Assembly (NCBI GenBank): GCA_000181795.3
Contig: CM012955.1
Coordinates: 6,149,716-6,213,715 of the forward strand
Direction of reading: 5' to 3'
Source of the DNA: Trichinella spiralis
Lineage: Eukaryota; Nematoda; Enoplea; Trichinellida; Trichinellidae
Length of the DNA: 64,000 bases
The position numbers and the translations under genes are program-made. Position 1 is the stretch's first letter. Each line of letters starts with the position of its first letter. The notes under the pieces are model-generated. The model made no database searches, was not told where the DNA came from, and saw nothing but the letters and a program-made list of their open reading frames with translations. Positions 22,036 through 44,903 of this stretch are shown here, piece after piece.

Positions 22036-25000
22036 CTATTTAGGTCTGGCGAGGGTGCAGGTGACGCAGCAGCGTTGCCTGTACTCAGTTGATTCACACA
22101 TGCCGAGCATATTCACCACAGGGCAATACTTTGAAGAGTCAGTACAATTTGGAATGCCTAAATTGGATATAATATCATTCATTGTTTACAAATATAAAAT
22201 GCAGCATTGCGCATAAATGTGAACAGAAGTAAATTTATATTTTTTTTTATTTGAGTGAAATTTACACGCACTCAGACACACAAACACAAGCACATGAATA
22301 TTTCTATCTGATGAGAGAAGCACATAATCTATCACCATAAATGATAAAATCAAACATAGAATAATGACGTATAGTACAGTTCTGTTCATTTATGGGGCAT
22401 GCAAAAATTCGCGTTAAACATTTTAAATAAGCTATAAATGTTTTCTAGGCCAACCTCGAATTCGATTCCAGTCATTCTGCTTATCTTCGTCACTGCAAGG
22501 AGGAATGGGATCACAGATTCGGCTAATGGCTGGCCTAAGACTACTGCTGCAACTGCTTCCGGCAGGTTTGTGAGTTTTATGCCAAACGCAATTCACAACA
22601 CGCATTTGAATTCCATGTTCACCGCATGTTTTGGAACACTGTATGCAGAGAAGATGGAACCCTCTATCGTGCAATCTGTCACGTCTAATTAACTTACCGG
22701 AAGCCATTCACCAGCTCTCCATTCAGCAACGCAATTTTTATTGAAGCATTCTTTTTTCATTTTGGGTCTTGTGTTTCGGTTGCAAACATTTCCACGATTA
22801 GCACGAGTACCGTTGGCAAACTTGCAATATACGTTGCGTCGTTGTATAGCAGTGGAAAAGCGAATACAACGTGAATCGGCGCACTAAATTCAACAACGAT
22901 TGCATGGTTTAATTTTAAATTGAAATGGTGAAAATTTTGTTCACCTCGCTCCATTCTTCCACAAACCATTCCGGACATTGTTCCATGCCGCAAAATTGTG
23001 TTTCGTAGGGTTTGTTGGATTTCGCTTCAACGCAAATTTTATCATCCACATAACTTGACCAGCCGTCCAATTCGATTTTACACTGAACGCTGCGAAACTA
23101 AAAAAAATTTTACAAATTCATCAGTTTCGTTTGTGATTGGTAAGATTTGTCTGAAATTTTACATACTTGCATTCCGGCGCTCGACTCACTCTGACATGTT
23201 TTTGAACAAGGGGACCAAGCTCCGGTCATCCAGTCAAATCGAACCAACGCTAAACTGTTACTGTCTTGTAGCACATTGTACAGATGCATAGCGCCCCGAC
23301 TTTTTAAATTTTCTTTCAATTCCTGAACATATATGAAATTAATTGATAAAATTTATCAATTAATAAATTCAGCACTTCGAATAAAGTGCCTCGAATAAGA
23401 TAGTCGACACTGCGATCTGAAATCCCATCGTCACCTAATTGACCGTCAGGTATAGCGATTGACTCATCAATACGATTTGTCAAAATTGATGATGATGATA
23501 AACTGCTAAAGTTTAACGTATTATTATTTGCCCATTTGATCAAATCAGTGTTGTAGGTATCCCATTCGGGAAGGCCGGAAAGAATTTTCGTGTCATTGTG
23601 ACTTGAAACAGCACCGGCGTTTATCACAGGTTTTTGTTTGCGTGCGTTGGTATCAGCAGTGCCACTACCTTTGACTCCGTATTTTCTTGGTTTAAATATC
23701 AGTGTAATATTACGCATCTGATCACCAGAACGGCATGTATAGACACCGGCATCTTTGTACATTGCATGGTTGATTCGAAGCGCTCCATTTTTAGAAATCT
23801 GTATGCGATCTAAATAATATTGCATAGTTCCATTATCGTCCGTTAACAGTTGATAAACATTTCACGGTAAAGTAAAATTTATTATGCATTTTTAAATTCA
23901 TCATTTAATATTTAATGATTTTTCTCTCTACAATTGTCTAATGTACATAATTAATAAATCATTGTCTTGCTTAAATCTAAATTCAATAGATCATATTTGC
24001 TTGCTATTTCAAAAGAGGACGTGTTAATTTAAGTTTTAATTTGAACATCTTGCAATTTGTTGAAAATGTTGCTTGGATGTGATGCATTTTATTTTAATTT
24101 AAACTGCATATATTTCAGCCATTAAACGAGAGTCCACTTCTAATTATGCGCATATAATCCAAGTAAAAGTACTCCAGTGTTAAATGGCATTAGCACAAAT
24201 GAAATCGAATAACAAATTTTATCGGAAATTTACCTATATATGCATGATGGAAAATGTAATATATGCAAAGTAGTTAAGCTGATAGATTTTGAAAATACCA
24301 TGCAAAGCGTTGCGCTGACATGTTTGGCAAACTGCGAACAAGAAATGCTTTTTTCTGAAAAATTTGAAGCTTTTCAAGAAAATTTTGTATTAACTTAGCA
24401 CATCCCTTGACATTTCATTGGACAAATTGCGACGAAGTTAAATAAACTGCTCAATTGATGGTTAGTTGATCACTGTGCGCTCTGATTAGTGCCGCATAAA
24501 GCATTTGAATCTATTGCAACTGCAGGCTCTCTAGAGGCTACATTAAAACAGACAGATTTCTGCTGCCATCTAAGAAAAATCAGTAAATTGATCCACACAA
24601 TTGGTCAGTCATTTTGGCAATCAATGGCTGGCTAATTTTTAAATAGAATCTGATCAATACCGGAAGACAGAATGTGCTGCAATGAACTTTTCAAAACTTG
24701 GCACTCTAGACTCAAAGAAACATTTCTAATATGGATTCGATATTGTTCAAAGTACAAGTATAGTTATTTGCGTAAAATTTCAAGCGATTTTTACTCAATC
24801 GACAGATACACTTACTGTCATAGCGAATAGGTAATTTGTCCTTCGTCCATTTAATTGGTGAGTCTTTGGTTCCTCCAGTTGGGCACTTGATTTTCAAGTT
24901 AGTTCCTTCAAACAAAGTTGCACGGCCTCCTACGCGTAGTGTAAGTCTTCGCCTTGTCGATTTTGTTAGATGGCTCATCGATTTGTTGTTTATTGTGGAT

Positions 25001-43900: not shown

Positions 43901-44903
43901 GCATTACTATGCATGTTCCTTTCTTAACCGATGTTTCTTGGAAATTATTGTTCAAAATTTCTTTCTGTGCAATTTTCAAGAATAGGTAGCAATATAAGCA
44001 AAAAGCTTTTTTTCTGAATAATACATAAAAACAGCTAATGTGTAAACATCTTCTCTGCAATTTTCAATCACTTTCAATCTTGTCTTGAACTTTTATCAAG
44101 AAAGAGTAGCAAACGTAATGTTTTTTACATAAATATTTATCACGCAATAGCCTTCGTCAAGTTCCAGTGACAGCTGCACTCTTTAAAGTCATTTATGTTG
44201 CAAAAATAAGGATAGAAAATTAACACCACAAACTGCGCTTGTCAATCAGTCAGCTTCAAAAATTAGACAGATTAGTATAGCAGTATTGAATAACAATTGC
44301 AATGCATTCATTCATTTACTAACTTAAATTCATATAACTGCAATAACAATTCATCTTCAATACATTATAATGATGCATGCTTTTGGTTTTTTAAATATTT
44401 TTCAGATTCTTTTCCAGAAACTATAAAATGCAAGCGGTCATGTTCTACCAACAATGCTAACACTATTTTATAATATTTGCATTTGAATAATAAAAATGGA
44501 ATAACCAATTTTCTGCCAAATAATTTTTGTGAAAAATTACACAGAACAAACAATTTGTAACGAATTTTATTATTTATCGATTGCGTAATGTCATGGTTTC
44601 TCTACTTTTACTAAGATGCATGATGTTTTTGTGCTTTTTTGATCAGTTTTAGCTACATTTTGTTGTTGCTGTTGTTAGTGTTTATTAATTTATCCAATAA
44701 AGTAGTTTAAACTTGAATTTTAATTTCTGCCCAAATAACACGCTTTCGTGTAGTATATATATGGTTAGCTACTAACTGGATTTTTATTAACAGAATTTGT
44801 CTTAGATGTGAAAGATGTCAAAGTGCACCTGTTGATCAAGAAAGGTCATCGCTCAAACAAGCCTGACCGATTTGCACAAGTTGTACAGCCAATACAAGGT
44901 TAA
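37838..44903 (+). CDS. MOLO-1-like single-pass membrane protein (levamisole receptor modulator family)
   Basis: Exons 37838-38051, 42179-42335, 42389-42575, 42728-42859, 43241-43389, 43448-43542 and 44794-44903 give 347 residues. Reading through the sixth exon instead stops at 43643 (344 residues). The N-terminus is a signal peptide (MAIFFHLSVVLPLGVCEA). The outer part has the MOLO1/TPM-type pattern: IDPC, then LICDPDSIMS, a helix (EEVVKQLKRL), CLCDSG...CWYQIGFAF, and RFAEIIRRQWNFGRCGEDILILI followed by MIFLSKGIAVSERTN. One membrane helix (about 262-284) precedes a basic tail (VRRRERGAFKRG). In C. elegans MOLO-1 is an auxiliary subunit that raises gating of levamisole-sensitive acetylcholine receptors. 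Which family member this is cannot be settled. Introns 3 and 4 appear to use GC donors (GCAAGT). The first intron is 4.1 kb. Confidence 0.78.
39449..39603. repeat. Compound microsatellite: (TACA)n, (TA)n, GT-rich
   Basis: About 65 nt of TACA units run directly into about 40 nt of TA and then about 45 nt of GT-rich repeat. A frame on minus translates it into Tyr-Ile and Thr-His runs, which is not a gene. Confidence 0.95.
40867..40911. repeat. Compound microsatellite: (CA)n then (TA)n
   Basis: CA units from about 40867 pass into TA units ending at about 40911. It is composed of the same dinucleotides as the 39.5-kb cluster in the same intron. Confidence 0.95.

What the first reader, a model, noticed from the sequence alone, without database searches (positions are those of the whole stretch)
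22036..44903. Head-to-head pair of neuromuscular-junction genes: punctin/MADD-4-like and MOLO-1-like
In C. elegans, MADD-4/punctin places acetylcholine and GABA receptors at the neuromuscular junction, and MOLO-1 is an auxiliary protein of the levamisole-type acetylcholine receptor. Here one of each family sits divergently, start to start, about 6.3 kb apart. Shared control from the gap would coordinate a receptor clustering factor and a receptor modulator. Seen: domains and orientation. Known: roles of the worm families. Inferred: co-regulation and orthology.
Basis: partly seen in the sequence, partly recalled or inferred. Interest (0 to 1): 0.75.

Follow-up and report, generated by a model that had tools for sequence, protein, structure and literature searches.

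The report
Conserved punctin and MOLO1-like gene pair
In the parasitic worm Trichinella spiralis, the gene for a secreted organiser of nerve-muscle synapses lies back to back with a gene for a membrane protein related to a known receptor helper, and the two appear to have stayed near each other in distantly related nematodes, although the second gene looks like a cousin rather than the known helper itself.

Summary
The window is Trichinella spiralis DNA. Minus strand 31559-22036 encodes a punctin/MADD-4 (ADAMTSL1/3-type) protein. Plus strand 37838-44903 encodes a predicted single-pass membrane protein over the Pfam MOLO1 cut-off (33.3 vs 27 bits). A 6,278-bp gap without a recognised gene separates the start codons.

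The second gene is probably not MOLO-1 itself: the same genome has a more typical MOLO1/TPM gene elsewhere (69.3 bits), and the window gene belongs to a separate nematode subfamily. Its predicted ectodomain has the TPM fold (best matches Psb32 and TLP18.3). Shared control is untested, and C. elegans data make it less likely: madd-4 is made by motor neurons, while MOLO-1 serves a muscle receptor.

Unexpectedly, both genes lie on contigs of equal length in four non-Trichinella assemblies, with consecutive locus tags in Heterodera trifolii. The linkage therefore probably predates the Enoplea-Chromadorea split. Orientation and distance in relatives could not be seen.

The parts
22036..31559 (-). 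punctin/MADD-4-like gene, start codon to stop codon, about 20 coding exons
   Evidence: tblastn of P0017 and P0018; Pfam domains; PLAC exon
31491..31559 (-). first coding exon of punctin, following public model P0017 (hydrophobic N terminus, signal-peptide-like by eye)
   Evidence: P0017 residues 1-41 match 31559-31380 at 67%, running over an intron; sequence
28801..31123 (-). N-terminal TSP1 and ADAMTS cysteine-rich region of punctin
   Evidence: own-genome search finds no other strong match to the cysteine-rich part
23370..25035 (-). exons with the immunoglobulin (I-set) domain of punctin
   Evidence: I-set 37.2 bits
22036..22157 (-). PLAC exon and stop codon of punctin
   Evidence: PLAC 35.2 bits
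31560..37837 (.). 6,278-bp gap between the two start codons; single copy, no recognised gene
   Evidence: 10 of the larger ORFs without a Pfam match over cut-off; no Rfam match at gathering score and no tRNA in the window; 31560-37783 matches only itself in the genome
37838..44903 (+).
   Evidence: PF17175 33.3 bits; exon matches of P0001 and P0002
37838..38051 (+). MOLO1-like exon 1 (hydrophobic N terminus, CDPD motif); alternative upstream ATG at 37784
42179..42859 (+). MOLO1-like ectodomain exons 42179-42335, 42389-42575, 42728-42859 (two introns with GC donors)
   Evidence: homology across the joins
43241..43389 (+). MOLO1-like exon with the predicted membrane helix (HIPTWA...)
43448..43643 (+). 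cytoplasmic-tail exon with RRWKAGFVG; can end at 43643 or splice on to 44806
44806..44903 (+). alternative last exon (DVKDVKVHLLIKKG...)
   Evidence: P0002, P0003, P0005 and Trichuris P0008, P0009, P0010 carry a like end; position
19573..21232 (-). exons of a UAA-family (SLC35B-type) transporter just downstream of punctin; fused to it in public models P0017 and P0018
   Evidence: UAA 240.6 bits; SLC35B1 structures match

Best explanation
Two nematode genes lie head to head: the madd-4/punctin orthologue and the T. spiralis member of a distinct MOLO1/TPM subfamily. Shown: domains, strands, gap, subfamily, predicted TPM fold, and equal contig lengths for both genes in relatives. Inferred: the two genes became neighbours before the Enoplea-Chromadorea split and have stayed close. 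Punctin is secreted by motor neurons and organises postsynaptic receptors, as in C. elegans. The MOLO1-like protein sits in the receiving membrane with its TPM ectodomain outside and a short conserved tail inside, and works like MOLO-1: it contacts a pentameric acetylcholine-type receptor and tunes its gating or surface level. The two genes most likely have separate promoters at either end of the 6.3-kb gap.
Against: No function, expression or binding was tested. The window gene scores 33.3 bits over only part of the MOLO1 model, and 2 of the 9 subfamily members scanned fall below the cut-off (Plectus P0138 24.3, Panagrolaimus P0013 19.7). In the tree Romanomermis, a clade I worm, does not join Trichinella and Trichuris, and the program warns of long branches. 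Linkage in relatives rests on contig length and locus-tag number; orientation and distance were not seen; the T. suis tags differ by three; the D. destructor contig is 4.9 Mb (about a 3-10% chance coincidence). No named clade V member was listed (capped at 7,995 candidates), so a role at C. elegans-type junctions cannot be read across.
Confidence: 0.6

Rival explanations
1. One reading: the 6.3-kb gap is a shared control region that co-expresses a receptor-clustering factor and a receptor modulator, and this keeps the pair together.
For: Linkage apparently kept across a split put at more than 600 million years for C. elegans and T. spiralis (PMC9071541, passage; linkage), and a large single-copy gap without a recognised gene. 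A Bxy-madd-4A reporter was active nearly throughout the body in C. elegans, not only in neurons (PMC9427778, passages).
Against: Far longer than a usual bidirectional promoter (general knowledge). In C. elegans madd-4 is transcribed in motor neurons under UNC-3 and UNC-30 (PMC11385328, passages), whereas MOLO-1 serves a receptor of the muscle cell. In the gap, UNC-30 core sites TAATCC: 2 found vs 2.7 expected; MEF2-like: 8 vs 5.7; COE-like: 0 vs 0.01 (the MEF2 and COE patterns are recalled).
Confidence: 0.2
2. Neutral inheritance: the pair is an old neighbourhood that has not been broken, with no functional bond between the two products.
For: No clear motif excess in the gap; C. elegans molo-1 is on chromosome III and madd-4 on I (recalled), so a MOLO-1-type gene does not need to be linked to madd-4.
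Against: A pair kept from Trichinella to Heterodera would be unusual: microsynteny is called limited even between Pristionchus and C. elegans (a title in the reference list seen). The C. elegans molo-1 comparison probably concerns the other subfamily.
Confidence: 0.4
3. The MOLO1-like protein is a TPM-fold membrane protein with another job (assembly factor, chaperone or phosphatase-like), not a receptor modulator.
For: Its best structural neighbours are a photosystem II assembly factor (Psb32) and a thylakoid lumen protein (TLP18.3) (titles), and phosphatase activity was shown in vitro for a plant TPM protein (PMC7487766, passages). Sequence likeness to the MOLO1 model is partial.
Against: A hydrophobic N terminus, one C-terminal membrane helix and the MOLO1 match fit the MOLO-1 layout.
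Confidence: 0.3
4. The shared contigs in relatives are coincidence or distant linkage, and close adjacency is private to Trichinellida.
For: Only contig lengths and tags were seen, not the DNA.
Against: Consecutive tags in H. trifolii; the chance of a shared contig is about 0.1-0.4% for T. trichiura, 0.8-2.5% for T. suis, 0.3-1% for H. trifolii and 3-10% for D. destructor, for assumed genomes of 50-150 Mb.
Confidence: 0.1

Closest known systems
MADD-4 / punctin (ADAMTSL1, ADAMTSL3)
   Same: TSP1 repeats, ADAMTS cysteine-rich region, Ig domain, C-terminal TSP1s and PLAC; most of the 120 listed homologues (of 375) that bear a descriptive name are called madd-4 or ADAMTS-like 1/3
   Different: No difference of kind was found; a separate short MADD-4B start was not looked for
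MOLO-1 (C. elegans auxiliary subunit of the levamisole receptor)
   Same: MOLO1 domain over cut-off, one C-terminal membrane helix, predicted TPM-fold ectodomain
   Different: Separate subfamily with a conserved RRWKAGFVG tail; a more typical MOLO1 gene exists elsewhere in the same genome; lies beside madd-4, while C. elegans molo-1 is on chromosome III
TPM-domain proteins TLP18.3 and Psb32
   Different: Proteins of photosynthetic organisms; 12-14% identity

Membership tests
Punctin / MADD-4 (ADAMTSL1/3) | Multiple ADAMTS-type TSP1 repeats | tested here: met
   9 stretches in the draft, 10 in P0017
Punctin / MADD-4 (ADAMTSL1/3) | ADAMTS cysteine-rich domain, Ig domain and PLAC in one protein | tested here: met
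   ADAMTS_CR_3 24.2, I-set 37.2, PLAC 31.7 bits, each over cut-off
Punctin / MADD-4 (ADAMTSL1/3) | No metalloprotease domain (what separates ADAMTSL from ADAMTS) | tested here: met
   Public model P0017 has no protease match and begins shortly before the first TSP1 region; 10 of the larger gap ORFs have none
Punctin / MADD-4 (ADAMTSL1/3) | Single orthologue, best matches are madd-4/ADAMTSL1/3 | tested here: met
   no tree of this family was built
Punctin / MADD-4 (ADAMTSL1/3) | Secreted by motor neurons, clusters receptors | not testable with these tools
   Seen for C. elegans only, in passages of papers
MOLO1 domain family (PF17175) | Score over Pfam's curated cut-off | tested here: met
   33.3 vs 27 bits; P0003 31.8 bits
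MOLO1 domain family (PF17175) | TPM-type fold of the ectodomain | tested here: met
MOLO-1 orthologue | Closest relative of MOLO-1 in its genome | tested here: inconclusive
   The C2 gene fits the MOLO1 model better (69.3 vs 33.3 bits), but no C. elegans MOLO-1 sequence was obtained
MOLO-1 orthologue | Binds the levamisole receptor and raises its open probability | not testable with these tools
   Needs oocyte recording
Co-regulated divergent gene pair | Correlated expression of both genes | not testable with these tools
   No RNA-seq at hand
Co-regulated divergent gene pair | Adjacency kept in relatives | tested here: inconclusive
   Equal contig lengths in 5 other assemblies, one with consecutive tags; orientation and distance unseen

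The most novel reading that the evidence does not exclude
A secreted synapse organiser and a TPM-fold receptor modulator form a divergent gene pair that selection has held together since the common ancestor of nematodes, with the modulator being an unstudied synaptic partner that C. elegans and its clade may have lost, so that the standard model worm lacks one half of an ancestral junction module.
Probability: 0.2. Interest if true: 0.78.

Novelty: new variant of a known kind. Interest (0 to 1): 0.5.

Why it matters
Acetylcholine receptors and their helpers are anthelmintic targets, and clade I worms carry a divergent ACR-16-like receptor with its own drug response (PMC7891710, passages). A conserved MOLO1-type protein encoded beside madd-4 is a concrete candidate for a missing accessory subunit in clade I, III and IV worms. 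If absent from C. elegans, it would have escaped the genetic screens done there. Long retention of a gene pair would also be unusual in nematodes and offers a test of why some neighbours are not separated.

Tried and rejected
Direct orthology to MOLO-1: considered, and lowered because of the C2 gene. A shared promoter from motif content: no support (its CAGSTG row counts CAGCTG twice and is not used). A hidden gene in the gap: 10 of the larger ORFs give no Pfam match over cut-off (a 66-aa ORF at the edge, 31556-31756, was not scanned), no Rfam match at gathering score and no tRNA in the window. Gap as a dispersed repeat: it matches only itself. Solved relatives by sequence: none for the MOLO1-like profile or the C2 protein at E 1. 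NCBIfam: no match for P0003, P0017 or P0140. PF04536 searched over the genome exon by exon: one match below cut-off, on C2 elsewhere. Ligand-gated channel search (PF02931): 62 exon matches, not sorted into subunits, so the client receptor stays open. Literature: no held paper has MOLO-1, levamisole and madd-4 together; none has MOLO1 as a whole word with nematode; one has punctin and Trichinella, on light response of Bursaphelenchus. The chromosome of C. elegans madd-4 was looked for in PMC7260190, PMC11385328, PMC10015018, PMC6057746, PMC12881522 and PMC9632837 without success. A full splice model of punctin had wrong exon ends (64 stops) and is not used; punctin exon claims rest. A script failed for a missing file and was run again.

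Counts: 120 of 375 homologues were listed; by my reading of the names 12 of these are named nematode rows with a contig length, and 5 of the 12 share that length with a MOLO1-like row. Six of the other 7 (Soboliphyme, H. schachtii, Aphelenchoides, Thelazia, Cercopithifilaria, Brugia pahangi) have no MOLO1-like row of their own name listed. For the seventh, T. spiralis (6,373,445), the listed MOLO1-like rows lie on contigs of 265,987 and 182,243, presumably of other assemblies; in this genome the pair lies within 23 kb. In one search, 25 proteins were listed, two without a species name (P0139, P0142), none named as clade V; 7,995 candidates were scored. The tree took 13 of these 25, one per species, plus the window draft and the C2 draft; that each species has one gene was not tested except here, where the window protein finds only itself and one weak hit (E 0.04). 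Acrobeloides has two listed rows. In one search, 22 of 25 proteins match the loose tail pattern, Heterodera only as RHWKESS; P0006, P0143 and P0144 lack the region.

Full report
What is there. The window lies at C3:6149716-6213715 of a 53.1-Mb, 14-contig genome. The draft of the plus-strand gene is 100% identical to a public T. spiralis protein over 288 tree columns, and T. spiralis P0018 matches many punctin exons at 90-100%, so I take the genome to be Trichinella spiralis (Enoplea, Trichinellida). On the minus strand a gene runs from a start codon at 31559 to a stop at 22036. A hand-spliced draft carries 9 TSP1_ADAMTS stretches, an ADAMTS cysteine-rich domain, an I-set Ig domain and PLAC, each over its Pfam cut-off. 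The public model P0017 gives 10 TSP1 stretches, the cysteine-rich and I-set domains and no protease; it lacks the PLAC exon and runs on into a transporter. The cysteine-rich region has no other strong match in the genome; the next is 28 bits. Most listed homologues with a descriptive name are called madd-4 or ADAMTS-like 1/3. It is the punctin/madd-4 gene.

On the plus strand a gene starts at 37838 (or 37784) and has exons 37838-38051, 42179-42335, 42389-42575, 42728-42859, 43241-43389 and a tail exon from 43448. It ends at 43643, or is spliced on to 44806-44903, or to further ends seen in other models. Two introns appear to use GC donors (42576, 42860). Homology with Trichuris runs through the second join, and the public model P0001 also joins there. 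Public models differ around the first of these two introns. The protein scores 33.3 bits for MOLO1 against a cut-off of 27, but over profile positions 6-78 of 122 only.

Is it MOLO-1? The same genome has another MOLO1 gene at C2:12915327-12916605. Its draft scores 69.3 bits over positions 1-120 and also 29.6 bits for the TPM domain. It is the only gene that the exon-by-exon family search finds, even at E 10. The window gene belongs to another group. Two searches returned 25 proteins, nematode in all 23 that bear a species name: Trichinella, Trichuris, Romanomermis, Plectus, Loa, Panagrolaimus, Halicephalobus, Acrobeloides, Panagrellus, Bursaphelenchus, Ditylenchus and Heterodera. In a tree of 15 rows (13 of the 25, one per species, plus the two drafts) Trichinella and Trichuris join with full support, the clade IV rows join, and the C2 gene stands on a branch of 5.85 changes per column. 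Romanomermis, also a clade I worm, does not join Trichinella, and the program warns that long rows are placed unsurely. Nine members share eight invariant cysteines, and the group has a GEDI-type core and a tail RRWKAGFVG just after the membrane helix, which the C2 gene does not show. I obtained no C. elegans MOLO-1 sequence, so orthology is judged by these indirect signs.

Linkage in relatives. print the length of the longest contig for each protein. Five nematode assemblies have the same length for a punctin and a MOLO1-like row: Trichinella T9, Trichuris suis, T. trichiura, Heterodera trifolii and Ditylenchus destructor. Locus tags are consecutive in H. trifolii (niasHT_023371, niasHT_023372) and three apart in T. 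suis (M514_05405, M514_05408). H. trifolii and D. destructor are Chromadorea, a different class from Trichinella. A review puts C. elegans and T. spiralis more than 600 million years apart and calls such dates difficult to estimate (PMC9071541, passages). The chance that a random second gene falls on the same contig is about 0.1-0.5% for T. trichiura and T9, 0.3-1% for H. trifolii, 0.8-2.5% for T. suis and 3-10% for D. destructor, for assumed genomes of 50-150 Mb. That equal lengths mean the same contig is an inference. I could not read the DNA of these species, so orientation and distance stay open.

Mechanism. In C. elegans madd-4 makes a long form from cholinergic motor neurons that clusters levamisole receptors and a short form that clusters GABA receptors, by alternative promoters (PMC11385328, passages). 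MOLO-1 is a single-pass membrane protein that raises the open probability of the levamisole receptor (PMC9714921, passages). By analogy the window pair would supply an organiser from the nerve side and a modulator on the receiving side. That makes one shared on-switch less likely, though not impossible. The gap is single copy, 28% GC, without a recognised gene and without clear excess of the motifs tried. Clade I worms have a divergent ACR-16-like receptor (PMC7891710, passages), so the client receptor need not be the levamisole type.

Verdict. The interpretation should be changed from punctin plus MOLO-1 to punctin plus a separate, conserved MOLO1/TPM subfamily, and from co-regulation to an apparently old linkage whose cause is unknown. 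Interest is moderate: the parts are known kinds, but neither the subfamily nor its linkage to madd-4 turned up in the searches of held papers, of which I saw listings and, for the papers cited, passages.

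Noticed in passing
19573-21232 (-): Exons of a UAA-family (SLC35B-type) transporter begin about 0.8 kb after the punctin stop on the same strand; public models P0017 and P0018 fuse the two genes.
   Followed up: partly
42576 and 42860 (+): Two introns of the MOLO1-like gene seem to start with GC rather than GT, both as GCAAGT.
   Followed up: partly
L014, L015 (C2:6928000-6953900): Two PLAC exons with nearly equal scores, 48.2 and 47.8 bits, lie 19 kb apart, one with a stop in the matched stretch; possibly a tandem duplicate.
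   Followed up: no
L013 (C2:12915327-12916605): The typical MOLO1/TPM gene of T. spiralis, apparently the better MOLO-1 candidate.
   Followed up: partly
63433-63780 (+): Exon with an SRF-type MADS domain, MEF2-like by eye (71.1 bits).
   Followed up: no
14018-14995 (+): Uninterrupted 326-aa reading frame for an Srsx-type 7TM receptor (49 bits).
   Followed up: no
690-1355 (+): UVB_sens_prot (RUS1-type by recall) exon, 130.7 bits.
   Followed up: no
7259-7972 (-): Reading frame with a C2H2 zinc finger (32.4 bits).
   Followed up: no
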